In this document: one piece after another, positions 971 to 53,359 of the stretch
Numbering within the stretch: the first letter of the stretch is position 1
Layout of the letters: each line of letters begins with the position of its first letter
DNA from: Tubiluchus corallicola
Lineage: Eukaryota > Priapulida > Priapulimorpha > Priapulimorphida > Tubiluchidae
Reading direction: 5' to 3'
Assembly (NCBI GenBank): GCA_030141605.1
Contig: JAQGDQ010001016.1
Location: forward strand, 1-64,000
Length of the DNA stretch: 64,000 bases
Program-made: the position numbers and the translations under genes
The notes under the pieces: model-generated
The model's input: only the letters and a program-made list of their open reading frames with translations
What the model was told of the DNA's origin: nothing
The model's database searches: none

Positions 971-1556
971 CATAGAATATTATACTGAATGTTTCTGGTC
1001 GTCTGTCTGGATGCAGTGTGAACATTCGCATAAAATCTGTGCCGGTATCCTTTATCGTGATATCTGTGAGATCTGGGTTGTCGGAAAAATCTAGATGTTC
1101 TATATCCAACTTTCGTGCGGTAATAATATAAATGATCTGTATAGTCTTTAACTTTGAAAAAGCTCTAGGATGCATTTCAGTTAACTTCCAACTGTTTTGC
1201 AAGTACAGCCTGTTTACGGTGAAATTTTCTGGAAAATCATCTTCAGCAATTTTTTCAATGTTAGAGTCATCAATGATTAACCAATTTAGTTTTCTTCCAT
1301 CAAGTATTTCTGGATACCAACGGGATTCAGCATATTTCGTGACAGTCAGAGTCGTTATCAAACTAGGTGCACCTTGTATTATATCATTTATCACGGGTAG
1401 ACTAAGTTTAGGCTCTAATTCACTGCCACACCACTGATAGCTATCGATAAACGGAATAGTGTAAATTCTAACTTCATAGTAGCTACAATTCATTTCCCAA
1501 ATATAAAGCTCACACTTAAAACACAACAAGAGTACACCTAATAGACAAAGAAACAT
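971..1556 (-). CDS. LRR surface protein, copy 3, exon 1 (partial gene; rest lies left of the window)
   Basis: Exon 1 of a third array member. The chosen start (M at 1556) puts a hydrophobic signal peptide, MFLCLLGVLLLCFKC, at the N-terminus. An in-frame upstream ATG at 1628 would add 24 residues that align only loosely with the copy-1 upstream region. The exon encodes a short Cys-containing N-cap followed by degenerate LRRs (for example LTEMHPRAFSKLKTIQ and HLDFSDNPDLTDI). It ends TAT G|GTAATC, a phase-1 donor at 971/970. It differs from copy-2 exon 1 by a single residue (Ser versus Arg in ETFxIIFYG). Downstream exons must lie beyond position 1, so the product cannot be completed here. Confidence 0.75.
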
Positions 1557-5122: not shown

Positions 5123-5355
5123 TCATGGGCTAAACATAAGCCTCTCTGTTGTAAAACTTAACAAAATAGTTGTGAAACATATCTCAATCAGAGAACTGCT
5201 AGAGATAAAACTTTTCTGTGTTTCTTCACAAAATTCATCCACTGAAATCTCTCTATCTGTATGCCGTATAGGTGGCACTGCACAATCAATTGTTGAAAAC
5301 AGCCATGGCTTTCCTTTTGTCCATTGCATGCTGCAGTTACAAACAAGACTGCTCA
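5123..5355 (-). CDS. LRR copy 2, exon 5 (terminal LRRCT and hydrophobic tail)
   Basis: Acceptor TTTTAG|TG at 5355/5356. It encodes SSLVCNCSMQWTKGKPW, a second Cys pair (DCAVPP, EFCEE), a Ser-rich stretch (SFISSSS) and the final ICFTTILLSFTTERLMFSP before the stop. The Ser run followed by a hydrophobic end resembles a GPI signal but is only moderately hydrophobic. Confidence 0.7.
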
Positions 5356-8300
5356 CTAAAATAAAATAATGCACCCTGAAAAAAGCTTGTTTGTACCTGT
5401 ATGGTAAGACTAGCTTCGTAATGCTTAATAGCTGGTATGCATGTTGGGTATTGGTGACAGAACTCAGAAAGCCAATTTGCATTGAAAGAGCAGAATAATT
5501 TTCCCGATAGCTGCTTAAAAGATTCCTTGGTTTCCAAGAAATTACGCACAAGAAAATTTTTATGTGACCAATTTATTTCATTTAAATCATAATGAAAACT
5601 TGCCCTATTAAGCTTGCTAACCATGTTAGTTATTTAATTTCGATTTTTAAATTTGCTAGCTGAATCATCAGAAAAATTAATGTTAAATTTCGTGTGTACC
5701 TGCTATTTAATATTTAAGCCTACACTTGCCACCATCCGCTTTCTTGAATTATCAGTCACTTTTCTCGGTACAGGACAGAAAAATTTATAAAATTTGGGAT
5801 CAATGTATGAACCGAAAGCTCCTTATTTTGCTACATTTCTCAACTAGAAGGTTTGATTTGCACATAGCAAAACTGAAACTTATTGATGGTAATAGGCAAA
5901 ACCTAAGCATGCTGAATGATTGCGACATCTAATGGCAAAGTTAGAAAATATAGCAGAAATATTAAGATTATAAAATCAGCATCTGAAATGGAGGTTTTTA
6001 CGTGGGACGTGTGGAAAAAAAGCTAGGATTTGTAACGTGTGCAAGCTGGTATAAATGCCAATTCCAAAGTGTTTCATAGACCAAATTTTCACATTCTGAT
6101 TAAACCAGTTTTCACACATAACATAGTGGACAAACCTCAAAAGTCTGTGAAAATTTTGAAAATCTCGTACATAATCTTGCTGAAAACTGTCCAAGTTTAT
6201 TAAATTGGTTCACTAGCAGTGGTTTTAAAGCGAATCCTAGTAAATTCCAGTCAAATGGTTTTGGTGTAAAGACAAATGATAAATTGAAGTGTTCAAACTA
6301 TCGAAATTGACTGTGCAGATTCAGTCGAAATTCTAGGTGTTAACATTGGTTTTAATTTCAATTTTAGCGAACATATTTTAAACCTTTGCCGGCGTACCTC
6401 TTGTTAAATTATTGTTTTAAAACGCCTCTTAACTTTACTAAATCTACATATATCTTCTGATTTGAACTATTGTCCATTAGTTTAGCATTTTTGCGGTGCA
6501 GCGAACACGCAAAAATTGAAAAATTACAAGAACGTGTTTTACGTTTTGTCTTCAATGATTACTTTACTGATCGTGACACAATGTTGAAAAAAGCTAAAAT
6601 TAAAAAGCTTATGGAAAATAGGCAAAGATTAATAGCATTAGAGGTGTTTAAAATTCGACATAAACACCGTCCAAAAAGCTTATGTAACATGGTTAATCTG
6701 AGAGAAAGCTCTTAGCAAATGCAATATGATACCATCACAAATATTACCAAAGTAAGCACAGAATTAGATGGAAAAAAGAAGTTTCCGATATTCAGCTTCT
6801 AAAATTTGGAATGAATAGCCCAATCATTTGTGCATAGTCACTAACTATAATGATTTCTTGAGGCAAATTAACGTATGGAGCAGGGACATATGTGGTACAG
6901 GAAAGCCAAAATAAGGAAAACTCACATGTTATCTCTAGAAGAATATAAGAGTATGATCTATCCTTGTGCAGAGTTGGCGTGTTCATTTGTGATATATTTG
7001 TTCCACTAATGATAATGGTAAAAATGGCTTTGTTGTTTGATAAATCCATCTCCATAGATACAAGCTGCTTACAGTTCCTGATGACAATCTGTTCCACATA
7101 ATTCATTTTGTAAAATGCTTTAGGGTGTATTGATTTCAACTCTTCATTATCGAATAGTTCAATTATTGATGTCACATTTCCATAAATGGCTTCTTCGTCC
7201 AATGTCTCAATATCTGCCATTCTTAATGTGAACTGCCGTACTGTCTTCCCATCGAGAAACTTTCTTGGCAGTTCTTTCTCTTTATAATCGACAATTTTTA
7301 GAAGATTTGTGCTCCGAGGCAACGAATGCCAGATATCTACCAACTTGTCCATGAAGAGAACACTACCATAGTCACCACATATTATGTTACATTTCCTAGT
7401 TTGTTGCCAATTTATCCACACATCGCATTCAGGTATTGGGAGATCACAGACTGGATTGTGCGTTGTTGATTCAGAAGGCACTTTTGTTGTAGTCAAGTCA
7501 CAGTCCTTTAATGATTCTTTCACTTCATCAATAGAAAATTTAACACAGTACAACTGCCAATCACACTGCTTGTAACACTCAACTTTACTTGATTTGTGCC
7601 AATGTTCACTTTCAGCCCACTTCAAATAACAATTGCAAAGAAGTCTATTTCCTGTAATACAATTAAGTTCCATAATAATAAGTTCTCCACAGAAATTTTA
7701 TGATTGATAGTTGGTATCTGGTAATATATTGCAGCAAATAAAAAAGACAGCATTTTCGTTTCTGTAAAACTATTACCATCATCATTGTGTCATCATCATC
7801 ATCATCAACAACAACATCATCATCAACTTAAATTTTAACTCGGGATCTAGTAGCTGTTGAAATAGCAGTGAGACATGGCACGGTAGTAAATTAAGAAATT
7901 CATTAAAAAATTTAGTATTGTCGCTACCTTTCAGCTTGAGTTGAATGTTCTTGGAGTCATAATACATGTGCAGTTTTGGTTTTTCCATGTGCATCATTCC
8001 AGTTTTTTCAATGTCAATTACACTAAGTTGGCGATTATTAGACAAATCCAAATTTATAGTTTCTAATTTGCGACAGTTTAGGATGATTATATTTTCAACA
8101 GTGTTTATCCAGTAAAATGCTTTTGGGTCGAGAACAGTTAATTCAGGAAGGCGTTTCAAAATGAGAGCAATCCTAATCGTTCCACCAATTGCTATTTTTC
8201 CAATTGTTTCTAGTTTTGAATCAGTAATTTCCAATGTGTCGACAGTTTTTCCTTCAAGGAAACTACTTGGAAGTTCCTTTTCTTGGAAATTAGCAATATA

Positions 8301-10111
8301 GAAATATCGAGTCCAGTGAGAGAGTCCTTCTACGATTTCCTCCAAGTCAGTTATGAAAAGTGGATCATAATAACCACAAGCAACAAAACAACCAGTTAAA
8401 TTATCAAGATATTCAACAACAATGCACTCATGAAGCACGATGCCACAGTCAACCGTTAAACATCCAATGAATTCTCCAATTTGTATTTCTCTTGTTGTAT
8501 GATTTACTGGTGGATCCTTACAATCGATAGCTGATTCTTTCCATTCTTTTGCTTTAGTCCACTCCATGCTACAATCACATTGTAATGGATTTCCTGTAAA
8601 TAAATCAATAGCTAATCAAATTTGTTAACAAGTTGACATTGAAATCCCTTCTTATGCTCTATGTTGTCAAATTTGAAATTTTCGTTGTACCGACTTCCGG
8701 AAATTTTAGTTATACCGACTTTTAGTTTGGTTGAGCTTATAGACCGATTTGATATTGTTTGCTGACTGACTGACTGACAGCACGTTTTTGTGATTGCTGT
8801 GGTTAATAATCAATTCTGTAACACCACGTATTCAGAATTTGGCATTACATTTCCGTTGAAAAATACCTAACAAATTGTCATAGAATATAGCTCAAAGAGT
8901 TCATTGGCACGTTTGCACCCAAAGGTCGGTGTCAGCATTTTCATTGAAAAATTTTCTTGGATTAATTGTGCCAAAAAATGTTTGTAAGATTCTATTATTG
9001 ATTATTGTTTTTTACCTGTTAGCGAGGCTAAACAAAGCTAAATATAAAATTATCATGACTTATATTTTACCTGTTAGTTTTATGATTAGCTGATCAGGAG
9101 TTCTGCCTGGATGAAATGATGGCATATCCATTCGCGTAATGCCAGTTTTGTCTATTACAAGCGTTTGCAAATAATGACAGTTCTGTAAGTCCAAATTTAT
9201 GTACGTAAGACGTGGAGCATCTGAAATTAATATGTATTTAACATAAGGCTGTAATTCAAACGCCCTTGGGTCAACGTAGATCAGATTGTCACAGCCTATG
9301 ATTCTGATATCTTTCTCAACTTGGCAACCAATTTCCGCAAAGCCAACACTCTCTATACTGCTGTACTTTAGTTCGAAGATCTTAATTACTTTGTATTCCA
9401 AAAATGCAATTGGTAGTCGCTTTTCTATGTAATTACTAATGTACAACGCATCTAAATAGGTGGGAACGGTTTTTTCTATCACATCCAAATTTCCGAAATC
9501 AAGTCTGAAGAACCAACCGCACTGAATCTGGCACGGATCTGTATTCAAAAAACGACACACTGGTAACTCTGGGCCGCACGGCTTTGGTTTTGGTGTGGTC
9601 GTAGGAGGGTTCGTCCATGTAGGGTGGATAATTGTTCTGATGGTTGACTCAGTAGTGGTTGTGGGGCATCCCAAGAATTCGTCAAAATCTGCAAGAGTCA
9701 TAGGTGGATTTACTCGTGGAGGGTCCAGGCATTCTATTCTAGAAAACTGCCAATTCACAGCTTTTGTCCACCGCATTGAACAGTTACAAATCATTGGATT
9801 TTCTAAAAAAAGATAAGCGAAATTTAATGAATTTATTCCTATTAACTTGTTTTGTGTTTATTCATAAAATTGTGTAATTTCTAATATAACTGATTGTTGC
9901 AAATTTGTTTGAACCTGTTTTCATGCTTTCGTTTCCTGCAAAGTTTTAATTTTGGAAACTTCACTCTACATTTGCTCACTCTCTCTCTCTCTCATTTCTT
10001 TCTCTTACTTTCTCTCTCTCCCTTACTCTCTCATCTGTCTCTCCCATGTCTCTCTTACACTCTCTGTCTTTCTCTTTCTCTCTGTCTCACCTCCCTCCCC
10101 TAACCTCCCCT

Positions 10112-10152
<41 letters not shown>

Positions 10153-11920
10153 CTTTCTTTCTGTTTCTTTCTACCTCTGATTCTCTCTTCTCTCACTAGT
10201 CATTATCGCTTGCTGTTGGCATGTTTTAGGAGAAACTACATGCTGCGATATAAAAAATAGTCATATCTAACTGAGTTCAATTTTTCATTGTTTACAGGTG
10301 CAATAGATGTCAAGAGTGTTGAGGCAAATATCACCAAAGTGATGAAAATGTACCTTAGAAATTGGCTTGATAAACGCAGAGGATGAAAGAAATATATCTT
10401 CTTGCTAGACTAGATCGTTTAAGAAATGTGCTTTCCAATCAATAGCTGTACTAAAAATTATACCGTTCCTTTTCACTATCTTTTACGAAGACTTAGACTC
10501 CAGTTTTGAAGTTATTGCTTGCAGTAGTGCTTCAGTATTAACTTTCTTCCATATATAAACTGAGAGTTTATAAAAAAAATTTATCTGTCATAATGAGGAT
10601 ATCAAGGAGTGAACATCTCGTTTTAAGATGGAAATGGTTGAATTGTGGACTGATTTTTAAGGCTCAATTTGATCTTGAATTTGTTTGTAATAGCTGGACA
10701 TGGATAATACCTAGTTCTGTGTCATAAATCTAGCTTTCATGTTGACTGTCAGATTTGTAATTAAATGTAAACGCTAATTATGATTAATTCACTCAGCTAA
10801 TTGTTTAAGCAAGACATTTTTGATATTCCTTACCAAACCTGTCTTTAATTAACAAAAAAACATGTATACAACAAACTTCTTAGAGTAATTTTGCTTTGAA
10901 AGGGGCTTCCATATATGTATTGCGTTTTAATCTTATCAATTGTAATTATAAGGACATGACAAGACTCAGTATTTAACTATACTGCAGGCTGATCTTTATC
11001 TACTTTTTCGTGAAGGTTGTTTAATTAATTTATATATCTCTTAATTGCTGATTTGTACAGTTTGTCTGCCGGAACTAGCCTAGCTCATGAGCCCATGCAC
11101 AGTAAATTTGTTCACTTCTTTTGCTGTCAGTATTGTACCAGAAATTGATACAGCCTATTCTGGCTCAGTAACGGTTTCCATGCTGAATCGGGTCAGTACA
11201 ATTGTGGTGTGCAAGCGGTTTTGGAGCGGTATAGGCTTGATTGCTGGTTTTAGCTTGCGTGTACTGGGCCAATATCGTACATGCCATAATGCCATGTAGC
11301 TGGCTCATAATATCAATATTTATTGGGAGATTACCATAGAATATTATACGGAATGTTTCTGGTCGTCTGTCTGGATGCAGTGTGAACATTCGCATAAAAT
11401 CTGTGCCGGTATCCTTTATCGTGATATCTGTGAGATCTGGGTTGTCGGAAAAATCTAGATGTTCTATATCCAACTTTCGTGCGGTAATAATATAAATGAT
11501 CTGTATAGTCTTTAACTTTGAAAAAGCTCTAGGATGCATTTCAGTTAACTTCCAACTGTTTTGCAAGTACAGCCTGTTTACGGTGAAATTTTCTGGAAAA
11601 TCATCTTCAGCAATTTTTTCAATGTTAGAGTCATCAATGATTAACCAATTTAGTTTTCTTCCATCAAGTATTTCTGGATACCAACGGGATTCAGCATATT
11701 TCGTGACAGTCAGAGTCGTTATCAAACTAGGTGCACCTTGTATTATATCATTTATCACGGGTAGACTAAGTTTAGGCTCTAATTCACTGCCACACCACTG
11801 ATAGCTATCGATAAACGGAATAGTGTAAATTCTAACTTCATAGTAGCTACAATTCATTTCCCAAATATAAAGCTCACACTTAAAACACAACAAGAGTACA
11901 CCTAATAGACAAAGAAACAT
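5123..11920 (-). CDS. Multi-module LRR surface protein, copy 2 (complete, 5 exons, 980 aa)
   Basis: Inferred CDS: 11920..11335, 9802..9071, 8593..7928, 7651..6926, 5355..5123. Exon lengths 586, 732, 666, 726 and 233 total 2943 nt, or 981 codons with the stop, and every junction is phase 1. Layout: signal peptide (residues 1-15); N-cap and LRR block 1 (to ~195); three repeated modules at 196-439, 440-661 and 662-903, each LRRCT-like (N-x-L-x-C-N/D-C-x-M/L-x-W) then Cys-rich N-cap then LRRs; a last LRRCT-like piece (904-980) ending in the weakly hydrophobic tail ICFTTILLSFTTERLMFSP. There is no cytoplasmic domain, so a GPI-anchored or secreted protein is the best inference. Function is unknown; LRR modules of this kind bind ligands or partner proteins. 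Two AATAAA motifs (minus strand) lie within 50 nt after the stop. Confidence 0.75.
5976..6850 (+). mobile_element. CR1/L2-like LINE, RT C-terminal remnant (unit 1)
   Basis: Broken by frameshifts and stops. Recognisable phrases of a non-LTR RT end: NWFTSSGFKANPSKFQ near 6200-6260, then LRCSEHAKIEKLQERVLRFVF and DTMLKKAKIKKL at 6490-6620, then ALEVFKIRHKHRPKSLCNMV to 6700. It is antisense to the LRR gene and sits in its intron 4. Confidence 0.7.
6926..7651 (-). CDS. LRR copy 2, exon 4 (module)
   Basis: Acceptor TTACAG|GA at 7651/7652 and donor ACA T|GTGAGT at 6926/6925, phase 1 both sides. It begins NRLLCNCYLKW. A short Thr-rich linker (TTTKVPSESTTHNP) precedes the N-cap (VCDLPIPEC, CNIICGDYG), then LRRs with KSIHPKAFYKMNYVEQI and MDLSNNKAIFTIIISG. 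The length of 726 nt matches copy 1 exactly. Confidence 0.75.
7928..8593 (-). CDS. LRR copy 2, exon 3 (module)
   Basis: Acceptor TTTACAG|GA at 8593/8594, donor AAA G|GTAGCG at 7928/7927, phase 1 both sides. It begins NPLQCDCSMEW, the closest match in the window to a textbook LRRCT start. N-cap cysteines appear in CLTVDCG, HEC and GCFVACGYY. The LRRs include LTVLDPKAFYWINTVENI and NLDLSNNRQLSVIDI. It is 666 nt in both copies and strongly conserved. Confidence 0.75.
9071..9802 (-). CDS. LRR copy 2, exon 2 (module with Thr/Pro-rich linker)
   Basis: Acceptor TTTTTTTAG|AA at 9802/9803, donor ACA G|GTAAAA at 9071/9070; both phase 1. The module opens with NPMICNCSMRW (LRRCT-like), then CLDPP. A Thr/Pro-rich linker follows (TTTTEST, NPPTTTPKPKP) that is probably O-glycosylated. 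Next comes a four-Cys N-cap (CGPELPVC, PCQIQCGWFF), then LRRs ending QLIIKLTG. The LRR centre is the part most different from copy 1. Confidence 0.75.
9960..10190. repeat. (CT)n-rich microsatellite tract
   Basis: About 230 bp of CT repeats with interruptions, with an uninterrupted CT run near 10118-10148. Open frames through it code only for Ser/Leu runs and are not genes. It lies in intron 1 of LRR copy 2. Confidence 0.9.
10297..10386 (+). CDS. Possible plus-strand terminal exon at the duplication boundary (unknown gene)
   Basis: After the acceptor-like TTTACAG at 10290-10296, a 28-codon frame reads AIDVKSVEANITKVMKMY then LRNWLDKRRG and a TGA at 10384-10386. The first two bases would complete a split codon. 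The composition (amphipathic, Lys/Arg-rich) looks coding, but I do not recognise it and no upstream partner exon is obvious. Its last 22 bases are also bases 1-22 of the window. It may be the tail of a plus-strand gene carried along by the duplication, or chance. Confidence 0.25.
   Translation, partial: GAIDVKSVEANITKVMKMYLRNWLDKRRG
11335..11920 (-). CDS. LRR copy 2, exon 1 (signal peptide, N-cap, LRR block 1)
   Basis: The start at 11920 gives the same MFLCLLGVLLLCFKC signal peptide as copy 3. Phase-1 donor TAT G|GTAATC at 11335/11334. LRR phrases include LTEMHPRAFSKLKTIQ. It is identical to copy-3 exon 1 except for one Ser-to-Arg change, so the duplication or a conversion is recent. Confidence 0.75.
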
Positions 11921-14900
11921 GTTTTCAAACTTCAAAAAAGGTTTCAGTTCTGTAGCACCTAGCAACCATAAGATCGTCAATTTAGAATTCAAATGAGAAA
12001 TTTAATATTGTTTTGAAACAATGGTTTATCAGACAATAAAATACTGTATTCTAAAGTGCCATTCTATTCTGCATAATTTATTGCAAGTTTAGAACTTGTT
12101 TGCAATGAATGAGTGGGCCTAACCATAAAGCAAAACTGATCCAAACTTAAACTGTAAGTCAATTTACTCTTTAAAACATAGAAAGCAGACATAATTATTA
12201 TTTTTTCAAAAATGACTTACGTGACAGATTAATTACCACACAAGCACAATTTCACGTTTGCACCACTAGTTCTTTGCTACCTCATGCATTTCGCCATTCG
12301 TTAGTAGGTCTCAGTTCAGATGTGTTAGTTTCTGACGAACTGTGCACGTTGGTAAATGGTAATTGGTAAAAGTGAGCACAATGGTAAATTTGAAATTTGA
12401 AATTTTATCTTAAAACTTGTCCAGTTTCAGTGCAACGAACTGAACATCTTATAATAGCACTGTACTTCAATTTTCGTTTTCGCATACACGTACAACAGCT
12501 CAAGGAATATTTTTGCTGTGGAAAATTATGTTTGCACATGATGTCATGAATAGTTGGGCTTGCCCGTGTTTAATTTTTTAATCTATTATATAATTATCAG
12601 GAACGCTTTTACAGTATTAATTTTGGTAAAATGTATTATTTTTATCAGACGAAAATCCTGTCCTTTTTATCCTGTCTTCCTATAGGAATTTATTGTAATA
12701 ATGCCAATAGAAAAGGTGCTACTGCTACAAAATGCATTTGCATAATTATATAATAAAAATCTAGAAAAAAATCAATATTTAGAAAATCGATTTCCATAAT
12801 TTATTCGTGATAGTATTTGTTATGCTTACATTGCGAATATCAATGTTAAACTTGCAAATTTCTAACAATATCCTATTTAAGATTAACACAGAAAACAGTC
12901 AAATGGGGTGTTTTGTCTTTAAGAATGCATTGGTTACAGTATTAGAATTGACAGAGTGAACACTAGTATAAGCAGACATGAATGAACCACGTCATGTTAA
13001 TGCACTAGTTCTACAGGCTCTTCATATTCTGTCCTCTTTGAGTTGCAGAATTCGTCACACGCTGTTGAATATAAGAGGGACTTCGCAGTTTATAACAGAT
13101 CCCAAAAACCTTTTGGTAGGTTTCATAAAGAGCAGTTTCACACTGAAGGGCTTTCGCGCTAAATTAAAAGCACGAGCAAGTGCTGTAATTACAGAATTAG
13201 ATACTAGATGACTGTAGTAAATAATTTATATCTGTGGCTGAATTGCTGAAGAGATATACTACAAATAATGTCTTAAAAATATTGAGCTGAATAGGTGAAG
13301 GTGCATTGTACAGTTCTGTTCATAGGCACCAGGCCAACCAACCTACAGGTAATGTTATGACGTCCTCCTGCTATTGGTTGAGCAGTGGTTTCCTGTGGAA
13401 AGAACGAAAACGTGACATCGTCAGTTGTCTTTTGGTTGTCGTGGAATGCACTTTTCCTGTCTGCCTGCTGAGTGTCGTGCATTCCGCAAGGTTTGAAGCA
13501 TGGTCATCGGATTTTGTTTTTTCTCTTTGTGATATTCTTCTCAGCCGTCCCTTTTGAATTCCAAGTTTTGGTTTTGTTGTTTGTTTCTTAAAATTTCTGG
13601 AGTATCCATTATGCAGCGCTTACCCGCATCACCGATGGCGGGCCATAAGGCTATCTACAGGGTCGAACCCCGGAACAATATTTATGTGTAAAACAAATTT
13701 AGAAGTTATTGATTCTATTAACAGTTCAACAATTTATTATTTCACTAAAACTCTTACTCGTCTTTTTTGTTATTGCATTTATTATTATGATTGTCTTATT
13801 ATTTATTGTCATGATTATGTGTTATGTTATTACGTATTTTAATTCTGCATTTTGTATGTGCATGATCTTATTTAAGAACCTCCTTGTGGTTCGTATAAGA
13901 ATTAAGAGGAAGAGTCGCTGTCAGGCTCGTCTAATGATGGGATACGTTGTTGTAGCAACCACGTGTGTTTATAAAACATCGCCTCACAAAGTACAGATGT
14001 AGCTAACCCATCGCTCTGCTGCGTTACCCCTGCTCCCACCGTACATAGTCAGGTATTCAAATAGCGATTAGATTGGTGGCCAGAGAATGTAGATTGAGTG
14101 GTATATAGCTTGAGAAATATTGAAGTAAGTAGGATTCCCACCTAAAACCACAGGACCGACAGCCAAGCATCGTAACACTTGACAACGACCTGTAATGAAG
14201 GGAATTTACATGTAACTTTCCAAAAGGCTTTGGGATTTGTGCTTATTCAACGCAATGCATAATTGAAGATTTGTGACATTCAAGGTGCAAAATAAGCAGT
14301 GCATTAGAGTCGTCATACATCGGCACTGTAATGAGGCATTGCAATAAACATGATTTCTTGTTCATTAAAACAGAATGTCATAATAACACAGAGAAGTGTG
14401 GCGTGAATCTCACTAATTTGGTTGTCAAAACGGTTCAAATTTATTTGGATCAAAAAATATTGCGCATGTAAATTTTTTTTTTGCAAATTACAAAGCATAT
14501 TTTCAACGAATTCTGCAGACAACTACAAAACTATAAAAAACAAAAAACTTTACACATATTTGGACAGTCAATGGCAGGATATTTTTTCGAGCCCATAATA
14601 ATAGTCAGAAACTGACGGTAGACTTTGAGCTAACGTTAGTTGTTAAACATGTCTCCCATGTTTAATGTCCTTCAAACTTAATTAAAATTTTTATGGCAAA
14701 ATTTCCTTTGTAACCATGAATGTAAACTGAATCAATGTTCCCATCAATGTGATATTGGAGACACCTAAAATATTCAACTTTGTCCGTTTCAGAGTTTCCT
14801 AATGTAAGGCAATAGTAGTGAGTAGTCTCCTGCATGAACTGTTTTAAAACTTTACTTCAATTTTAGGGCTACGGTGACAAAACAGCTCAAGATACAGTAT

Positions 14901-15535
14901 CAACAAAATGTGAGAGGCAACTGCAATTCGTCCAGCAAGTAAAGGTTAGAAGCAACAGGGTATCAAAGTTGTCCATGGTGCATGCCAGAAATGCTTAAGG
15001 AAGTGTTGCAATTACTGCAACATCAAAAATAATAAAAAATCGAAGATGTTTTTCATCACAATTTTTAATAGGGCTTTAAAGCGCAAGGCGCTTGACTGCA
15101 GTTTGATATAATAATATGTGCAGCACCGCATCTTTCTTGTGCAATTAGAGTAAATTAAACCACACCAATGTATAGCTGTTTCAAATACAACTGGAGATAC
15201 TAGGAATTTTTTAAATAATGACTGACTCTAATTTAAAATATAAGATTTACAAAGACATAAACGAACTGCAACTTGTTTTACTAAGACAAGTATAGGGCTT
15301 AGTTCTAGCACAATACTGAGTAATTCTCTCACATTATCAATTCATTGGACACTATTTAACCATCTGTCAAAGTGCAAGCTACATTTGCTGTGAAGCAGGG
15401 CTGATTATCTATTAACGAGCAGATTTATTTCTTGTTTTGTTATTGTTTTTCGGTGATTTTTAATACTTTCTACAATATTTTTGTCTTTTATTAATTTAAT
15501 GTCTATCATTTAAGAGGAAGCAGGTTTTATTACCA
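11921..15535. other. Intergenic region between LRR copy 2 and copy 1
   Basis: Near-copy of 1557-5122 with a 12-bp insertion near 13640 and rising divergence after about 14.5 kb. No gene supported. A 43-bp exon-like stretch (TTTTAG|GGCTACGG ... AAAAT|GTGAG, about 14866-14910, matching 4461-4503 in unit 1) could encode GYGDKTAQDTVSTK on the plus strand. There is no further support for it. Confidence 0.35.
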
Positions 15536-15768
15536 TCATGGGCTAAACATAAGCCTCTCTGTTGTAAAACTTAACAAAATAGTTGTGAAACATATCTCAG
15601 CCGGTGAACCTCTTGAGATAAAACTTGCTTGTGTTTCTTCACAAAATTCATCCACTGAAATCTCTCTATCTGTATGCTGTATATGTGGAACTGCACAATC
15701 AATTGTCGAAAACAGCCATGGCTTTCCTTTTGTCCATTGCATGCTGCAGTTACAAACAAGACGGCTCA
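15536..15768 (-). CDS. LRR copy 1, exon 5 (terminal LRRCT and tail)
   Basis: Acceptor TTTTAG|TG at 15768/15769. SRLVCNCSMQWTKGKPW then DCAVPH and EFCEE. The pre-tail differs from copy 2 (SFISRGSPAE versus SFISSSSLIE), but the end ICFTTILLSFTTERLMFSP is unchanged. Confidence 0.7.
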
Positions 15769-18700
15769 CTAAAATAAAATAATTCACCCTGAAAAAAGTT
15801 TTTTTGTACCTGTATGGTAAGACAAGCTTTGTAATGCTTAATAACTGGTATAAAGTTAGGTATTGGTGACAGAACACAGAAAGCCAATTTGCATTGAAAG
15901 AGAACAGAGTAATTTTCCCGATAACTGCTTAAAACATTCCTTGGTTTCCAAGAAATTACGCACAAGAAAATCTTTATGTGACCAATTTATTTCATTTAAA
16001 TCGTAATTGCACTGTTAAGCTTGCTAAACATGTTAGTTATTTAATTTCGATTTTTAAATTTGCTGAGCCATCAGAAAAATTAATGTTAAATTTCGTGTGT
16101 ACCTGCTATTTGATATGTAAGCCTACACTTGCTACCATCCGCGTTCTTGAATTATCAGTCACTTTTCTCGGTACAGGACAGAAAAATTTATAAAATTTGG
16201 GATCAATGTATGAACTGAAAGCTCCTTATTTTGCTACATTTCTCAACTAGAAGGTTTGATTTGCACATAGCAAAACTGCAACTTATTGATGGTAATAGGC
16301 AAAACCTAAGCATGCTGAATGATTGCGACATCTAATGGCAAAGTTAGAAAATATAGCAGAAATATTAAGATTATAAAATCAGCATCTGAAATGGAGGTTT
16401 TTACGTGGGACGTGCAGAAAAAAGCTAAGATTTGTAACGTGTGCAAGCTGGTATAAATGCAAATGCCAAAGTGTTTCATAGACCAAATTTTCACATTCTG
16501 ATTAAACTAGTTTTCACACATAACATAGTGGACAAAACTTAAAAGTCTGTGAAAATTTTGAAAATCTTGTATATAATCTTGGTGAAAACTGTTCAAGTTT
16601 ATAAAATTGGTTCACTAGCAGTTGTTTTAAAGCGAATCCGAGTAAATTCCAGTCAATTGGTTTTGGTGTAAAGACAAATGATAAATTGAATTGTTCAAAA
16701 TATGAAAATTGACTGTGCAGATTCAGTGAAATTTCCAGGTCTTAACACTGGTTTTAATATCAATTTTAGCGAACATATTTCAAACCTTTGCAGGCGTACC
16801 TCTTGTTAAATTAATGTTTTAAAACGTCTCTTAACTTTTCTAATTGTAAACTGTATAAAGGCTTTTTTCCACGCTTTTATATCTTCTGATTTGAACTATT
16901 GTCCACTAGTTTGGCATTTTTGCGGTGCAGCGAACACACAAAAATTGCAAAAATTACAAGAACGTGCTTTAGTTTTGTCTTTAATGATTACTTTACTGAT
17001 CATGACACAATGTTGAAAAAAGCTAAAATTAAAAAGCTTATGGAAAATAGGCAAAGATTAGTAGCATTAGAGGTGTTTAAAATTCTACATAAACTCCGTC
17101 CAAAAAGCTTATGTAACATGGTTAATCTGAGAGAAAGCTCTTATCAAATCCAATATGATAACGTCATAAGTATTACCAGAGTAAGCACAGAATTAGATGG
17201 AAAAAAGTAGTTTTCCGATATTCAGCTTCTAAAATTTGGAATGAAAAGCCCAATAATTTGTGCATAGTCACTAACTATAATGATTTCTTGAGACAAACGA
17301 ACATATGGAGCAGGGACGTATGTGGTGCAGGCAAGCCAAAATAAGGAAAACTCACATGTTATCTCTAGAAGAATATAAGAGTATGATCGATCCTTGTGCA
17401 GAGTTGGCGTGTTCATTTGTGATATATTTGTTCCACTGATGATAATGGTAAAAATGGCTTTGTTGTTTGATAAATCCATCTCCATAGATACAAGCTGCTT
17501 ACAGTTCCTGATGATAATCTGCTTCACATAATTCATTTTATAAAATGCTTTAGGGTGTATTGATTTCAACTCTTCATTATCGAACAGCTCAATTATTGAT
17601 GTCACATTTCCATAAATGGCTTCTTCGTCCAATCTTTCAATATCTGTCATTCTTAATGTGAACTGCCGTACTGTCTTCCCATCGAGAAACTTTCTTGGCA
17701 ATTCTTTCTCTTTATAATCGATAATTTTTAGAAGATTTGTGCTCCGAGGCAACGAATGCCAGATATCTACCAACTTGTCCATGAAGAGAACACTACCATA
17801 GTCACCACATATTATGTTACATTTCTTGGTTTGTTGCCAATTTATCCACACATCGCATTCAGGTATTGGGAGATCACACACTGGATTGTGCGTTGTTGAT
17901 TCAGAAGGCATTCTTGTTGTAGTCAAGTCACAGTCCTTTAAAGATTCTTTCACCTCATCAATAGAAAATTTGACACAGTACAACTGCCAATCACACTGCT
18001 TGTAACACTCAACTTTACTTGATTTGTGCCAATGTTCACTTTCAGCCCACTTCAAATAACAATTGCAAAGAAGTCTATTTCCTGTAATACAATTAAGTTC
18101 CATAATAATAAGTTCTCCGCAGAAATTTTATGAGAAACAGTTGGTATCTGGTAATATATTGCAGCAAATAAAAAAGACAGCATTTTCATTTTTGTAAAAC
18201 TATTATCATCATCATTGTGTCATTGCAGTGATCATCATCATCATCATTATCGTTATAAATTTATTATAATAGTAAATTAGTATTATTAAAATATAATAGT
18301 AACTGTTGAAATAGCAGTGAGACATGTTTTGCCGAAATTGAGAAATTTTTTAAAAAATTCAATATTGGTGCTACCTTTCAGCTTGAGTTGAACGTTCTTG
18401 GAGTCATAATACATGTGCAATTTTGGTTTTTCCATGTGCATCATGCCAGTTTTTTCAATGTCAATTACACTTAGTTGGCGATTACTAGACAAATCCAAAT
18501 TTATAGTTTCTAATTTGCGACAGTTTACGATGATTATATTTTCAACAGTGTTTATCCAGTAAAATGCTTTTGGGTCGAGAACAGTTAATTCAGGAAGGCG
18601 TTTCAAAATGAGAGCAATCCTAATCGTTCCACGAATTGCTGTTTTTCCAATTGTTTCTAGTTTTGAATCAGTAATTTCCAAAGTGTCGACGGTTTTTCCT

Positions 18701-21700
18701 TCAAGGAAACTACTTGGAAGTTCCTTTTCTTGGAAATTAGCAATATAGAAATATCGAGTCCAGTGAGAGAGTCCTTCTACGATTTCTTCCACGTCAGTTA
18801 TGAAAAGTGGATCATAATATCCACAAGCAACAAAACAACCAGTTAAATTATCAAGATATTCAACAACAATGCACTCATGAAGCACGATGCCACAGTCAAC
18901 CGTTAAACATCCAATGAATTCTCCAATTTGTATTTCTCTTGTTGTATGATTTACTGGTGGATCCTTGCAATCGACAGCTGATTCCTTCCAATCTTGTGCT
19001 TTAGTCCACTCCATACTACAATCACATTGTAATGGATTTCCTGTAAATAAATCAATAGCTGACCAAATTTTTTTAACAAGTTGACAAGTAGATCCCTCCC
19101 TTCTCTCTGTTCAGTAAAATTCGAACCTTGTGTAACTTATTTTACTCTGAAATTAATTTTGAAACTAATGATTAAAAGAATTTACTCAGGCCCACGAACT
19201 ATACATATTAGGCTGCTTGCTTCTTTTTACCCTTTGTTAAAGTAAAACCGGACGATTGTTTAGATTCGTTCTCATATTAATTTAGTGTCCAAAATATACA
19301 TTTTCTTTCCTATAAAAGCTAACAATTGAATATTTAGCTTAGAAAGTTAATTAATGGCAACTGAACACAGACATTGCTTATGTCAAAAACTAACCACAGA
19401 AACTACCCGCTGCTAATCTTAGTAGATTCACTGAGACGCGAATAGCTTTGAAAGTTTAATGAAATTGTTATATGTATAACATCCTTGTGATACTTGTCTT
19501 TGTACGTCATATATTCACTGTGGTTGGCTTTATTTCACAGGCTCAATTCTGCAATGCTACGTATTCAGAATTTGGTGCTATTTTCCACTGGACAATACCT
19601 AACAAACGGTCATGGAATATATTCTCAATGAATTTACTGGCACATTTGCACTCAAAAACACTGTTAGTATTTTCATTGAATAACAACTGATAGAATACCT
19701 TGGATTAATTATATCAAAAAATAATACTCGTACTTTAGCACAGTAGCCAGGTACCATTAACCTCTGTCACTAAGGGCGACATTTTTAAATGAAGCTAAAT
19801 ATATAATGCCAAACCTCTCTTATTCACCAAACTCATTAGTGTATCAAACATCAGGAATGTATTTGTGTATCAACAAACACATTAGTGCACCAAACATCTG
19901 GAATGTATTTGTGTATCAACAAACACATTAGTGCATCAAACATCTGGAATGCATATGTGTGTCAACAAACACATTAGTGCATCAAACATCTGGAATGTAT
20001 TTGTGTATCAACAAACACATTAGTGTATTAAACATCTGGAAGCTATTAGTGTATCAAAAACTCTTTAGTGTATCAACTTCTGGAACATAATACTGACTGT
20101 TAGCTAAAACTTATCAGAGATATTTTAAATCATATAGGATTCTCACATATCTGGGAAGCTGAAAGTACAGAGTCCATTAGGCACAAAAAAATTATTAATT
20201 CACTGAAATCAAAACTGCAAACCAAATTACTAGAAGAAAAATGTCCCTAGAGAAACTGGTAAAAACATTAACGAAAAGAATAAGTTACAAACTTATTCCA
20301 AGTTTAAAAACGAATTCATAGAAGAAAAATACCTATTTTTAATAAAAAAAACCCTGTTAAAAAGCAAAGTTTACAAAATTGCATATTAGCTCATACAACC
20401 TCTTTATTGAGAAAGGCCGACACATCAAAGCTAAAACCGTATTAACAATAGATTACGTAATTTCTGTGAAGAACAAAATTGATGACCAAAAGCAATTAGT
20501 TCTTGACTGCAACTATTATATTGATTTAAGCCGTTTTTCCCATGTCAATGAAATTTTCCCAAACTTTATTAATCTTACAGTACAGGAAAAACTTATATTT
20601 CTAATGAATGGAAATGAATGGAATGTAAAGTGAATTGCATATTGTTTTTTTTCATTCGTCAGTAAACTATTACTATTATTATCATAACTATTATTATTAT
20701 AATTATAATGAGTTCTATTTTTACCCGTAAGTTTGATGATTAGCTGATCAGGAGTACTGCTTGGGTGAAAATTTGGCATATCCATTTGAGTTATGCCAGT
20801 TTTGTCTATCTCGAGGGTTTGCAAATAACGACACTTTCGTAAGTCCAAATTTATAGATGTCAGACGTGGGGCGTCTGAAATTAATATGTATTTAACATAA
20901 CGCTGTAATTCAAATGCTCTTGGGTCAATGTAGTAAAGTTTATCATTGCTTATAATTCTGATATTTTTTGCAACTTTTCCACTAATTTCACCAATTCCAA
21001 CCCACTCTATACTGTTGTATTTCATTTCAAAGGTGTTAATCGTTTTGGATTTTAAAAATCGAAGTGGTAGTCGTCTTTCTACGTAATTACTGATATACAA
21101 TGCATCAAAATTGTCAGGAACGGTTTTCTCTATGACATCCAAAGTTGCAAAATCAAGTCTGAAAAACCAACCGCACTGAATCTGGCACGGATTTGTATTC
21201 AAAAAACGACATACTGGTAACTCTGGGCCACATGGCTTTGGTTTTGGTGTGGTCGTAGGAGGATCCGTCCACGTAGGGTGGATAATTGTTCCCGTGCGGA
21301 AGGTTGTATCGGTAGGGCTTCTGGAGCAATCCAATAATTCGTCAAAATCTTCAAGAGTCATAGGTGGATCTACTCTCGGAGGATCCAGGCATTCTATTCT
21401 GGAATAAAACCAAGGCACAGCTTTTGTCCACCGCATTGAACAGTTGCAAATCAATCGATTTTCTAAAAAAAACAGCGATAATACACTGAATGCATAAGTT
21501 TTCTTTTTGTTAGGTACTTGTTTGACTATTTCTGCATGCATTTATATAAGCATACGCAATTACTTTTAAAATAACTGATTGCTTATACCTGTTATAATTA
21601 CAAAGAATTTTTGTTTGCTTTGAAAATAACATAAGCTGAAATGTCGTCAAGCAAATTGGTCTATCGCTCGACGTCCACTCTGACTTAAGCTCAGTGGCAT

Positions 21701-24700
21701 TCGGGACAACAGTTCACAACATCTGTCTAAACCAAACTAAACAACATGACAGTCGAAACTAAAGTCTAGTTTACTTTTGCATAAACAGAAATTTGCAGAG
21801 CAGTAGCTATTTTTACACGAAATGAGCACTTCAAGTAGCCAAAAAATTACTTTTCAATTTAAGCAGAATGCAGAGACGAGCAGCAATGCAAAATACAGAG
21901 ACATAAGTACAATAAACAAACAAAACCAGTTAGCCTTGCTTAGAAATAAATGAGAAACAAAAATATTATTGTTATGAATAAATTTCGGAAAATGAATTTC
22001 AGTAGGTGTTAATTGAGTTACCAGATGAATTAGATTCAGATGATAAACTCGCTCTTCCCTAAGTTAAGTAAGGAAATTTATACAAGTTGAATATGGAACT
22101 CACCCAGCTGGTGGCTCGAATTTAATGAGTTAAATTGTCGCAAGATAGTAGAAGGACAGGTGTAAAATTCAAAGGGACACTATTGATTACGCGGCATGCA
22201 TACAGATTAGAAGACAATAGGAAGAAGGTAAATAGCGATCATTTGTCACATGTCGGGAAAGTAATTAGAAGCCCCAAGGTCTAGTATCAGTGCTTATTGA
22301 TCATTAAATTGAAATCAGAAGTAATACCGCCCAGACAGTGCGGAAAAAATCAAAAGCAACAAAATGTAGGAACAGTCATTATTGGTTATAAAATCAGAAA
22401 GTGAAAGTATTAGCCGCTGTCCAGGAGGTAAAGTGTCACCAGATGGTGCAATACACGAACATCAGGCTTTTGCAATATAAGCTAAGAAAAATATTCTAGC
22501 GACACACCAAGGTGACGTGAGAGTCACATACACAACGAGGGAGGAAGTCTGACAGTGGTTGTCGCCATCGTGTTGTGTCCAAGATATCTTCTGCAAGATA
22601 AGAAGCATCGCTAGCCCAGGGTGGAGGAACATCTACGTACTTGGCAAAGTTTGAGCACTGGTGCTGCGAAGTCTCGTTAGGAACAGGGATTTGGCCTAAA
22701 GCAGTGGTACATTGGCCAATCCGCCAGTTAAGTGAATTAACTTATTTATTTTGTAACTTGTATCTGATACAGTTGTAACCGTAACGTAGTTGTATGATTT
22801 AAGCACCTTCAGTGCATCATACCAAGAGAGAAGATCAGTTAAGTGAATAGCATCTCTTTGGAACTAGACATTATTTGTAAACGCCCACTGGCGTATGAGG
22901 ACAAATCTTGTATTGGTACCAGAGTTGATTAAATTGTAAACTGTAAAGTTCAATAAAGTCTATTCACTGTATTAACTTAAACATTGAGTTTGTGAATGTT
23001 TAATACGTTATTGGTAACTCATAATCGCAACACTGGATCCTTGATTTGAACCTGAAGCGATTCGCAGTGTAGAGCTCATTTGCGGGAGCTGGCTAGTAAA
23101 CTTGAGGGATAAAGATCTGACTCACAACGCAAGTTCGGTGGTTATAGTCGTGTAGGACAGATCATTGCCTTATCGACTGAACCAAAGCCCTCGGCGTCGG
23201 GTAATCGATCAGTTACCTGGAAGCAATCGAGTGTGAATCCCAATAATTATTAATTCGATTAATTACTTCAATTAATCATGGTCGCTCTGTGAAAATTAGA
23301 GGGTGATATTATGTGTATCTTGCCTTTGAACATGCGAACATCACTACCAGCCTACGGAAATGGAATAAAATAGATTGTTCCGTTCCATAGACGACCCTTA
23401 TATTGAATGCCCGAATTGCATCTTTTAACCATGATTATAACCGCAAAAACAGTGCAAAATTAACTAATATTACGTTGATGTATAATATCAGTTTTGATCT
23501 AATTTGAATTCACTTTGACTGTGAAGGTCTCCTTGAAGTTTAAAAAACTGGCTAGAAAAGAAAACGTCTAGCAAAAAAAATTTGAAAACGTTTTTTCTAA
23601 ATATGGGGATCCTATGACTGTGCTGGTTTACTCATAATCATGACAGTTGTCACAGACTCCCGTGAATAAGTTCAGCTCCGGGGCCATGCCTCGATTATTG
23701 CTGACTAAGACCGGCTATTTAGAGGTGCGCAGGCTGGAACATCGTTTTTATCTAGCTTGCAATGTTATAAACAAAGTCAAACTGCGTATTTTCTTGATAA
23801 CAAAATGGTTGAATCAGCAACTCATAGACGTAAGCATTTCTTCTTATAAACAAAACTAGACAATATATATCCATTAATTCACTTGCAATTTCAAATGACA
23901 GTAACAAAATTTAGAACCAGGCCAATATTTCTCCCGCCAACTAATGAAAAGTTGAGCATTTTTCATAACAGTATTAGATGCAGCTGTAGCTAAACGTTCA
24001 GAACAAAGCTCAAAGGATTGTGAAATAACTTGCATGCCGATTGGCTATTTAATGATAATGATTGACATTATGCTAGACATCAATTGGAATGTCAATCTGT
24101 GTCAAACCTAATGTTCAAATAACGACAGTAACTCTGGGCCATATTGTTCTGACTCTGTTATGAGGGGCGTAAGATTAACAAGATATCAGTGAATGCCCCA
24201 TGCTTGTAATTGGATGTCTTATTGGAAACTAAGACTTCTCTCCCATCAGCCTTATTTATTATTTGACTGCATCATTATAATTTTTGAGACTTTGTTTATT
24301 CCATATCTGGAGAAAAGCATCATTTTCTAACTCAGATTAATTTTTGAAATCTGAAATCAGATTTTTAGAATCCACTATGTAGGCTAGTCCAAAATGGTAA
24401 ACTTACGAAGAAGCATTATACTGAACGTTTCAGGTTGTCTGTCTGGATGCAATGTGAACTTTTGCAGGAAATCCGTGCCGGTATCCCATATCATGATCGT
24501 GTCCAGAACTGGGTTGTCAGAAAAATCAAGATGATCTATATCCAACTTTGGTGCGGTAATAATATAAATGATCCGGGCATACTTCAAATTAGAAAATGCT
24601 CTAGGATGCATTTCAGTTAACTTCAAACTGCGTTTCAATTGTATCTTGTTCACGTTAAAATCTTCTGGAAAATTATTTTCACCGAATTTTTCAATGTTAG

Positions 24701-25058
24701 AGTCATCAATGACTAACAGATTTATTGTTTTTCCATCAAGTAATTCAGGATACAACCGGGATTCAGCATATTTTTGAATAATCATTGTTTCAACTCTCGC
24801 GGAGACACGTTTCATAATGTCATTCATTATGGGATAATCAAGGTGAGGTTTGAATTGATCACCACACCAAACAATGCACTCAGGTTTTGGGCGACGATAG
24901 GAGACGGAAACCACAAAATGACATTTTCTTGGCACAAATTCGCATGAGAACTGAATCATATCAACAGTCCACTCTGGTTCGGTCGGTTTAACTGGATCAC
25001 TGAGAGCGCTTTTGTTAAAAACGTGAAACATGAATACGCATGATAGATAAAGAAGCAT
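15536..25058 (-). CDS. Multi-module LRR surface protein, copy 1 (complete, 5 exons, 1004 aa)
   Basis: Inferred CDS: 25058..24407, 21462..20725, 19040..18375, 18081..17356, 15768..15536. Exon lengths 652, 738, 666, 726 and 233 total 3015 nt, or 1005 codons with the stop, and all junctions are phase 1. The architecture is the same as copy 2. The signal peptide MLLYLSCVFMFHVFNKSA, N-cap and LRR block 1 occupy residues 1-217. Modules follow at 218-463, 464-685 and 686-927, and the terminal LRRCT and tail at 928-1004. Exons 3 and 4 are almost the same as in copy 2, while exons 1 and 2 differ much more. A protease gene fragment ends only about 500 bp upstream. The function is unknown; an extracellular recognition role is inferred from the LRRs only. 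Confidence 0.75.
16380..17280 (+). mobile_element. CR1/L2-like LINE, RT C-terminal remnant (unit 2)
   Basis: Duplicated partner of the remnant at 5976-6850, independently decayed by different frameshifts. Readable pieces: FVFNDYFTDHDTMLKKAKI, ALEVFKILHKLRPKSLCNMV and SSYQIQYDNVI at 16970-17160. It lies in intron 4 of LRR copy 1. Confidence 0.7.
17356..18081 (-). CDS. LRR copy 1, exon 4 (module)
   Basis: Acceptor TTACAG|GA at 18081/18082, donor ACA T|GTGAGT at 17356/17355; 726 nt as in copy 2. It begins NRLLCNCYLKWAESEHW. A few replacements only (for example KVPSES to RMPSES, VEQIVIRN to VKQIIIRN). Confidence 0.75.
18375..19040 (-). CDS. LRR copy 1, exon 3 (module)
   Basis: Acceptor TTTACAG|GA at 19040/19041, donor AAA G|GTAGCA at 18375/18374. 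It is 666 nt as in copy 2, with NPLQCDCSMEW at the start. Only a handful of replacements separate it from copy 2 (for example KAKEWKESAI versus KAQDWKESAV). Confidence 0.75.
19829..20075. repeat. 46-bp minisatellite, about five copies
   Basis: The phrase ATTAGTG recurs at 19835, 19881, 19927, 19973 and 20019, exactly 46 bp apart. Each unit contains CAAACATCTGGAATGTATTT or a near variant. The last units are shortened. It is absent from the matching intron of unit 1 and lies in intron 2 of LRR copy 1. Confidence 0.9.
20100..20636 (+). mobile_element. LINE ORF2 3'-end remnant
   Basis: The end of an 84-codon open frame matches the usual extreme C-terminus of L2/CR1-type ORF2: YNLFIEKGRHIKAK, then LDCNYYIDLSRFSHVNEIFP, then FINLTVQEKLIFLMN. 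The canonical Cys pair before it is mutated. It is antisense to LRR copy 1 and absent from unit 1, so it inserted after or independently of the duplication. Confidence 0.55.
20725..21462 (-). CDS. LRR copy 1, exon 2 (module with Thr/Pro linker)
   Basis: Acceptor TTTTTTTTAG|AA at 21462/21463, donor ACG G|GTAAAA at 20725/20724, phase 1 both. It opens NRLICNCSMRWTKAVPW, then CLDPP, a linker ending DPPTTTPKPKP, and the N-cap CGPELPVC and PCQIQCGWFF. The LRR half shows many replacements relative to copy 2, while the N-cap and the DAPRLTxINLDL repeat are conserved. Confidence 0.75.
21463..24406. other. Intron 1 of LRR copy 1; candidate LTR inside
   Basis: A 2.9-kb intron with no coding exon visible. 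The stretch 21.6-23.4 kb is more GC-balanced than its surroundings and looks transposon-derived. Confidence 0.5.
22571..23032 (+). mobile_element. Candidate LTR (TGTTG...CAACA)
   Basis: About 460 bp starting TGTTGTGTCC and ending ATCGCAACA, with AATAAA at 22952-22957 placed as in an LTR R region. A leader-like sequence follows, but no gag or pol. No target-site duplication is seen and no second LTR is present, so the call is tentative. Confidence 0.3.
24407..25058 (-). CDS. LRR copy 1, exon 1 (signal peptide, N-cap, LRR block 1)
   Basis: Start chosen at 25058 so that MLLYLSCVFMFHVFNKSA forms the signal peptide; an upstream in-frame ATG at 25148 is possible. Donor CTT C|GTAAGT at 24407/24406, phase 1. 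The N-cap has CEFVPRKC and ECIVWCGDQF, one Cys pair more than copies 2 and 3. LRR phrases such as LTEMHPRAFSNLKYARI align with copies 2 and 3 throughout. Confidence 0.75.
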
Positions 25059-44171: not shown

Positions 44172-44600
44172 TTACACACAACAAAAAAATAGGCAAACCA
44201 CGTGAGTAGAATTAGGAAAAACAGAGAAATTGAGAAGTTTTATGGCAGAAATAAGCGATAACAAAAGTCTACATAAGAATAAAAACAATTTATGATTGGC
44301 ATGATTTTCAGCAAGAACAGGTTGATTATTTGCAGGATTGTTAGGATCACAGAATTGAGCTAATGTCATTTTATCTTCATCGTGGCTGTGAGACGGAACG
44401 TGACAGTCAAATATCGACTCCATCGAAGAATCTTCTTTCAGCCATTTCAAACTGCAGTTGCAAAAAAGCGATTTCGTGAAAAAAGTTAAAAATTGAAAAA
44501 CTCCAATGTGCGTTTGTGCAAAACAAAGATAATTCAGTTGCTTATTTAACGAAAAATCCAACAATTCAGAAAAACGATTATTAGCTAAAAATATTGTATC
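44172..44600 (-). CDS. Orphan LRR end exon (LRR, LRRCT-like motif, hydrophobic tail)
   Basis: Open from about 44600 to the stop at 44172. Reads FLANNRFSELLDFSLNKQLN (LRR-like), then KSLFCNCSLKWLKED (LRRCT-like), FDCHVPSHSHDEDK and AQFCDPNNP. The C-terminus is a strongly hydrophobic stretch including LFLFLCRLLLSLISAI. It matches the terminal exon of the LRR array in plan but has no acceptor at the usual place before the CNC motif; LRR and LRRCT are continuous here. Other exons of its gene were not found upstream to 46 kb. Could be a relic of a dispersed family member. Confidence 0.5.
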   Translation of the reverse strand, partial: DTIFLANNRFSELLDFSLNKQLNYLCFAQTHIGVFQFLTFFTKSLFCNCSLKWLKEDSSMESIFDCHVPSHSHDEDKMTLAQFCDPNNPANNQPVLAENHANHKLFLFLCRLLLSLISAIKLLNFSVFPNSTHVVCLFFCCV

Positions 44601-46252: not shown

Positions 46253-46259
46253 ATGTAAA

Positions 46260-53359
<7,100 letters not shown>

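What the first reader, a model, noticed from the sequence alone, without database searches (positions are those of the whole stretch)
5123..25058. Phase-symmetric LRR cassette genes: a modular surface-receptor array
Two genes rebuild exactly from five exons (2943 and 3015 nt, both multiples of three). Exons 2, 3 and 4 are all phase 1 at both ends, and each carries the same unit: LRRCT-like CNC start, Cys N-cap, LRRs. Any such exon can be lost, gained or swapped without breaking the frame. Together with tandem duplication this is a ready-made way to build variable recognition proteins. I know of no described family with module borders placed inside the LRRCT in this manner, though I cannot search.
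Basis: partly seen in the sequence, partly recalled or inferred. Interest (0 to 1): 0.75.

Follow-up and report, generated by a model that had tools for sequence, protein, structure and literature searches.

The report
Modular multi-domain leucine-rich-repeat gene family
A probable animal genome carries a large family of secreted or membrane-tethered proteins built from repeated blocks whose gene borders almost always fall at the same point; some relatives have gained extra blocks, but the two genes in question keep a fixed order and show no sign of rapid diversification.

Summary
The two five-exon genes are real: 2943 and 3015 nt, all four introns phase 1, GT-AG. They encode four capped LRR domains with a hydrophobic N-end and C-end. 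The window's own genome (343.5 Mb) lists 164 matches to one module, a lower bound. Outside intronless or relic frames, the phase-1 acceptor stands at 78 of 79 LRRCT starts examined, the phase-1 donor at 79 of 79 ends. Nine genes rebuild as five exons. In a tree of 64 modules, second, third and fourth exons form separate clades: no swapping seen. Module gain does occur in relatives: five modules 81-93% alike on C1432, a duplicated two-module block on C1363. Selection looks purifying. The array evolves by gene-level duplication and recombination. The cassette anatomy is supported; the 'variable receptor' reading is not. Species, splicing and function are unproven.

The parts
11335..11920 (-). 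gene A exon 1: hydrophobic N-end (signal-peptide-like), N-cap, LRRs of domain 1; phase-1 donor
   Evidence: Pfam LRR_8 E 3e-5, below its cut-off
9071..9802 (-). gene A exon 2: LRRCT of domain 1, Thr/Pro linker, four-Cys N-cap and LRRs of domain 2; phase 1-1
7928..8593 (-). gene A exon 3: LRRCT of domain 2, N-cap and LRRs of domain 3; phase 1-1
   Evidence: AlphaFold model
6926..7651 (-). gene A exon 4: LRRCT of domain 3, N-cap and LRRs of domain 4; phase 1-1
5123..5355 (-). gene A exon 5: LRRCT of domain 4 and short hydrophobic C-end (weakly GPI-signal-like); stop TGA, AATAAA from the fifth base after it
24407..25058 (-). gene B exon 1: hydrophobic N-end, four-Cys N-cap, LRRs of domain 1
20725..21462 (-). 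gene B exon 2, phase 1-1 module
18375..19040 (-). gene B exon 3, phase 1-1 module, 96% aa identity to A exon 3
17356..18081 (-). gene B exon 4, phase 1-1 module, 97% aa identity to A exon 4
15536..15768 (-). gene B exon 5: LRRCT and hydrophobic C-end
971..1556 (-). exon 1 of a third copy (Z); the rest lies beyond the contig start
1..8638 (.). first copy of the tandem unit that holds exon 1 of Z and exons 5-3 of A
   Evidence: 96% / 94% to 10365-19086
10365..19086 (.). second copy of the tandem unit: exon 1 of A and exons 5-3 of B; similarity falls near the exon 3/intron 2 border
44172..44600 (-). lone LRR plus LRRCT frame with hydrophobic C-end; no AG at the module border, so an intronless member or relic

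Best explanation
A large family of extracellular, probably often GPI-anchored, proteins with four tandem capped LRR domains. One ancestral exon (C-cap + N-cap + LRRs, bounded by phase-1 introns at the LRR/LRRCT junction) was duplicated in frame to make domains 2-4. In the canonical genes, those of this window included, the three module exons have since stayed in fixed order, each diverging in its place under purifying selection; copies multiply as whole genes by tandem duplication, with unequal crossing-over or conversion making mosaics such as gene A, whose exons 1-2 and 3-5 have different ages relative to B. The symmetrical border still lets modules be added, as on C1432 and C1363, and lets different C-ends (GPI-like, or long mucin-like tails) follow the same LRRCT. 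Shown by sequence: exon structure (no transcripts), border conservation, fixed order, mosaic divergence, module duplication, constraint. Inferred: the founding exon duplication, surface or secreted location, GPI anchoring, ligand binding by the solenoids (innate recognition or cell adhesion).
Against: No transcript supports any splice site. The C-ends of A and B are weak GPI signals (best 14- or 15-residue hydropathy 1.2-1.9, charged residues near the end); C676 as rebuilt ends without a hydrophobic tail. Pfam shows no LRRCT or LRRNT hit at E up to 1 in the five exons of A. Exon 5 alone is not significantly constrained (p 0.19). Some copies are broken. The 99.9% stretch of the tandem unit, and C1724 against C794, could be assembly or haplotype effects. 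The species is unknown and no relative outside this genome was found, so nothing is known of the family's spread.
Confidence: 0.68

Rival explanations
1. A variable recognition system: module exons are shuffled, skipped or chosen by alternative splicing to give a receptor repertoire.
For: Module borders are phase-compatible; relatives with at least five and six tandem modules exist; solenoid fold shared with many receptors, a lamprey VLR among them.
Against: Modules keep position, 13, 14 and 13 modules per class; pN/pS below 1 in all exon and module pairs measured, also among the five C1432 modules; strand positions not significantly enriched for change (exon 1, 22 of 42 against 41 of 115, p 0.067; exons 2-4 no excess). 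The genes are complete in the germline.
Confidence: 0.1
2. Structural or adhesive secreted matrix or mucus proteins, with no recognition role; the LRR blocks are spacers or self-association units.
For: Four LRRCT exons lie in frames of 718-1718 residues with Ser/Thr/Pro- or charge-rich tails, two of them ending in basic stretches; chondroadherin is the top structural match, though tied with receptors.
Against: A and B and the short terminal exons lack such tails; fold matches are a mix of receptors, adhesion and matrix proteins.
Confidence: 0.27
3. The tandem array and near-identical contigs are partly assembly artefacts (uncollapsed haplotypes, hairpin reads).
For: 1-3000 against 10365-13364 differ at 2 sites next to a contig end; listed matches on C786 come in mirror-image pairs; C1724 carries a similar arrangement, its module 3 94% identical to A's.
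Against: A and B differ at 33-44% of synonymous sites in exons 2 and 1, too much for alleles; paralogues on several other contigs keep the structure.
Confidence: 0.12
4. The phase symmetry is an inert leftover: it records the founding exon duplication and has no present role.
For: Fixed order in the canonical genes; intronless members have a like multi-domain layout, and one such frame repeats its three-domain block without introns.
Against: C1432 and C1363 show later module duplication in intron-containing genes.
Confidence: 0.35

Closest known systems
Amphioxus FrLRR and Slit2-N (PMC10199209, abstract and passages seen)
   Same: A Slit2-N-type region of tandem LRR domains (four in Slit2-N), a GPI anchor in FrLRR, origin by exon shuffling proposed; tested there as bacteria-binding phagocytosis receptors
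   Different: FrLRR has a folate-receptor domain and nine exons, is described as a unique gene, and its last exon begins inside LRRCT; here one exon per module and many genes
Slit
   Same: Four consecutive LRR domains with caps; weak LRRCT and LRR sequence match to Slit2 (E 0.3; E 3.2e-4)
   Different: A and B end about 34 residues after the last LRRCT cysteine, with no room for EGF or laminin-G parts (recalled features of Slit); Slit is cited as having short LRR exons (PMC6642158, passage)
Brown-algal ROCO LRR exons (PMC11378527, abstract and passages)
   Same: Phase-symmetric LRR exons, proposed receptor diversification
   Different: 72-bp phase-2 exons, one LRR each, in LRR-ROC-COR GTPases, diversifying selection reported; here phase-1 exons of about 220-260 residues, extracellular by inference, purifying
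Lamprey VLR (PMC3308329, passages)
   Same: LRR solenoid with caps, repeated coding units near each other
   Different: VLR germline genes are incomplete and assembled from flanking cassettes; these genes are complete
Glycoprotein-hormone receptor ectodomains (FSHR, TSHR)
   Different: No seven-helix part in A or B; introns of gonadotropin receptors are phase 2 (PMC11378527, passage)

Membership tests
extracellular LRR (eLRR) proteins | signal peptide | tested here: inconclusive
   Hydrophobic N-ends in A, B and 7 rebuilt paralogues by hydropathy; no dedicated predictor
extracellular LRR (eLRR) proteins | LRR solenoid | tested here: met
extracellular LRR (eLRR) proteins | LRRCT cap with C-x-C, W and later Cys | tested here: inconclusive
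   C-x-C at the 93 starts listed (selected for it), W and later Cys in the alignment; but Pfam LRRCT not reached at E up to 1
extracellular LRR (eLRR) proteins | canonical LRRNT | tested here: inconclusive
   Four Cys in the module N-caps, with unusual spacing read by eye from the alignment; no Pfam hit
Slit | four LRR domains followed by EGF and laminin-G domains (recalled) | tested here: not met
   Four LRR domains present; the frame ends about 34 residues after the last LRRCT Cys, AATAAA right after the stop
VLR | incomplete germline gene with flanking LRR cassettes | tested here: not met
   Complete five-exon genes
VLR | somatic assembly | not testable with these tools
   no reads
Toll/TLR or LGR receptors | TIR or seven-helix part after the LRR ectodomain (recalled) | tested here: not met
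   A and B end after LRRCT and one short hydrophobic stretch
phase-symmetric LRR exon families (ROCO type) | repeated symmetrical LRR exons of one phase | tested here: met
   phase 1 and whole-module size are a variant
phase-symmetric LRR exon families (ROCO type) | exon shuffling with diversifying selection | tested here: not met
   No swap between positions and pN/pS below 1; module duplication alone is seen in relatives

The most novel reading that the evidence does not exclude
The phase-1 LRR/LRRCT junction is a standing recombination and splicing socket: in members such as C1432 (at least five modules 81-93% alike) any module can be joined to any later one, by germline crossing-over or by alternative splicing, and the last LRRCT can be joined to GPI-like, mucin-like or other C-ends, giving one animal lineage a large plug-in repertoire of multi-solenoid surface proteins.
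Probability: 0.12. Interest if true: 0.8.

Novelty: new variant of a known kind. Interest (0 to 1): 0.45.

Why it matters
Having fixed-order genes, genes with multiplied modules and intronless members of one family in one genome makes it possible to test when symmetrical exons are actually used for module gain, and when they are only a record of origin.

Tried and rejected
Relatives outside the genome: viral contigs and genome contigs gave none confirmed; these collections hold viruses, bacteria and archaea, so this says little. Species: COX1 was not found in the assembly (searched under the standard reading), so the organism is not placed; 'animal' is my inference from introns, extracellular LRR proteins and neighbours, not a tool result. 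Exon-1 strand enrichment: a first mapping through the exon-3 model gave 23 of 39 against 35 of 109, p 0.004; with exon 1's own AlphaFold model it is p 0.067, so I do not claim it. Foldseek alone gave no hit at E up to 0.001 for the exon-3 model (best 6.7e-3); the structural statement rests on VIA-align of Foldseek's own candidates and the sequence profile. First automated rebuild of nine genes: A, B, C1724 and C42 came out right, three failed and two took a wrong exon 1; those five were repeated with the exon-1 frames seen. These rebuilds, chose among phase-1 donors only; what is not by construction is the exact position, the open frame and the acceptors. Print searches in which I saw no paper on whole LRR modules bounded by phase-1 introns at LRRCT; one library, mostly listings, so not proof of absence. 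Rejected idea: a VLR locus (the genes are complete).

Papers: abstract or passages seen of PMC2235866, PMC2637281, PMC6642158, PMC11378527, PMC3308329, PMC10199209, PMC4346834; all others only as search listings. Slit's EGF and laminin-G parts, the seven-helix and TIR parts of receptors, Dscam and the GPI-signal rule are recalled.
Full report
WHAT IS THERE. The window (32-36% GC per 4 kb) is positions 1-64000 of contig C794 of an unnamed 343.5-Mb genome, so its left edge is the contig's start. Exon 1 of a third copy lies at 1556-971. An AATAAA begins at the fifth base after each stop, so the genes plausibly end there. No transcript was available.

THE FAMILY. Searches of the window's own genome listed 164 (module 3 query), 168 (module 2), 150 (module 4), 150 (exon 1) and 137 (exon 5) matches: overlapping sets, mirror copies included, and lower bounds because at most 150 candidates are scored in full. 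Reading these lists by hand, the order 1-2-3-4-5 on one strand appears for A, B, C1724 (115-108k), C42, three genes on C786, two on C1123, two on C94, C1992, C1527, C58 and C676; of these one C786 gene (a stop in exon 3) and the second C1123 gene (exons 2 and 4 incomplete or split) look damaged. A second C1724 copy (105-101k) has exons 2 and 3 broken and no exon 5 listed. Only parts of the order were seen on other contigs (for example C507 3-4-5, C1965 1-2-3). Nine genes were rebuilt from DNA: A, B, C1724, C42, two on C786, C1123, C1527, C676; five exons each, 975-1008 aa, no internal stop (five of the nine needed the second try; phase-1 donors only were considered). The others were not fully fetched or are damaged.

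THE BORDER. In the 31 loci L009-L039 plus window 1-26000, 93 LRRCT starts were found by profile and C-x-C; 80 have AG exactly two bases before the N codon. Of the 13 misses, 12 lie in intronless or relic frames (L012, L015/L016, L030, L031); those frames hold 14 starts, 2 of them with AG. The 13th (L020) has an AG in the same phase one codon further out. So 78 of 79 outside those frames. A few of the 79 are mirror copies on contig C786. The lone frame at 44.5 kb of the window, outside this count, has no AG. Donors: of 98 LRR ends examined, 18 lie in intronless or relic frames and one is a broken fragment; the other 79 have GT one base after the last model column. At least one gene has a further intron inside a module (C2128).

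DO MODULES MOVE? In a tree of 64 full modules (29 of 93 extracted pieces lacked the LRRCT and were left out) the second, third and fourth exons form separate clades (ultrafast bootstrap 91 with one C2128 module inside, 100, 98). So the order was set before these genes separated, and no swap is seen. By contrast C1432 has five modules 81-93% identical in tandem and C1363 six, with two neighbouring modules repeated as a block (80% and 75%; other pairs 58-63%). Whether each set is one gene was not shown: C1363 is cut by the contig end, and the ends of the C1432 set were not read. C2128 seems to have a fourth module; its exon 1 was not found in the lists. An intronless frame on C628 (1440 aa in the fetched stretch) repeats a three-domain block; a 956-aa intronless frame on C786 has four LRRCT starts. 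On C716, C2111, C2227 and C2024 the same LRRCT start, behind the same phase-1 acceptor, opens frames of 718-1718 residues with long Ser/Thr/Pro- or charge-rich tails; Pfam names no domain there above its cut-offs in the three scanned.

HOW THE ARRAY EVOLVES. Window 1-8638 and 10365-19086 are 94-96% identical, but A and B differ at 103 of 274 synonymous sites in exons 1-2 and 28 of 323 in exons 3-5 (Fisher 8e-18). Similarity falls near the exon 3/intron 2 border (the two longest alignable pieces of intron 2 are 78% and 79% alike). Gene A is thus a mosaic: unequal crossing-over or conversion, in register, with a switch at a phase-1 intron. The fall is not sharp to the base: intron 3 differs at 15%, intron 4 at 5.5%. 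Within the unit 1-3000 differs at 2 sites while 4201-5122 differs at 6.7%: a more recent event, or an assembly effect near the contig end.

SELECTION. pN/pS for exons 1-5 of A/B is 0.64, 0.37, 0.23, 0.15, 0.51 (exon 1 p 0.002, exon 2 8e-9, exons 3-5 together 2e-7, exon 5 alone 0.19). Among C1432 modules 0.22-0.33, C1363 0.25-0.44, with strands and other positions alike. On exon 1 the strands differ at 22 of 42 positions against 41 of 115 (p 0.067). So constraint, with no significant sign of diversification.

FUNCTION. Most likely an extracellular ligand-binding or adhesive protein. Of 22 LRRCT-led tails printed, six are broken module pieces, relics or frames without a tail (one of them the 956-aa intronless frame, which stops inside the LRRCT); of the other 16, 14 have a stretch of 15-residue hydropathy 1.2 or more within 10 residues of the end. 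It is strong in some (C1123, C507, C1652) and weak in A and B. A four-LRR-domain protein (human Slit2-N) and a GPI-anchored amphioxus protein with a Slit2-N-type LRR region were reported to bind bacteria (PMC10199209, abstract and passages); that is a lead, not evidence here.

VERDICT. Observation right; mechanism half right. A new variant of phase-symmetric LRR genes.

Noticed in passing
30693-32342, minus strand: Trypsin-like serine protease pieces (GDSGGP motif, named from recall), the last with a hydrophobic C-end.
   Followed up: no
25279-26922 / 33652-35284 and 28581-30056 / 36035-37645: A second tandem duplication, 87-91% identical, without LRR modules found by profile.
   Followed up: partly
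46194-46553 and 51816-52220, plus strand: Sulfotransferase-like exons: the second matches Sulfotransfer_1 at E 1e-3, below the cut-off; the first has no Pfam hit and was named from recall.
   Followed up: no
42681-43538 (minus), 49086-49598 (plus): Retroelement pieces: DUF1758 peptidase and H2C2 integrase, both just above their cut-offs.
   Followed up: no
G000:C786, whole contig (81352 bp): Listed family matches come in mirror-image pairs, nearly without exception in the cut lists: a palindromic contig, real or from a hairpin read.
   Followed up: partly
L030 (C628:543001-549000): An intronless 1440-aa frame (open at the fetched edge; 1460 aa in the genome search) repeats a three-domain LRR block nearly unchanged.
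   Followed up: partly
62789-63153 and 63782-63998: 30-bp (12 copies, 97%) and 40-bp (5.4 copies, 98%) tandem repeats; the 30-bp array is open in two plus frames and one minus frame.
   Followed up: no
L032-L035: LRRCT exons in frames of 718-1718 residues with Ser/Thr/Pro- or charge-rich tails, two ending in very basic stretches.
   Followed up: partly
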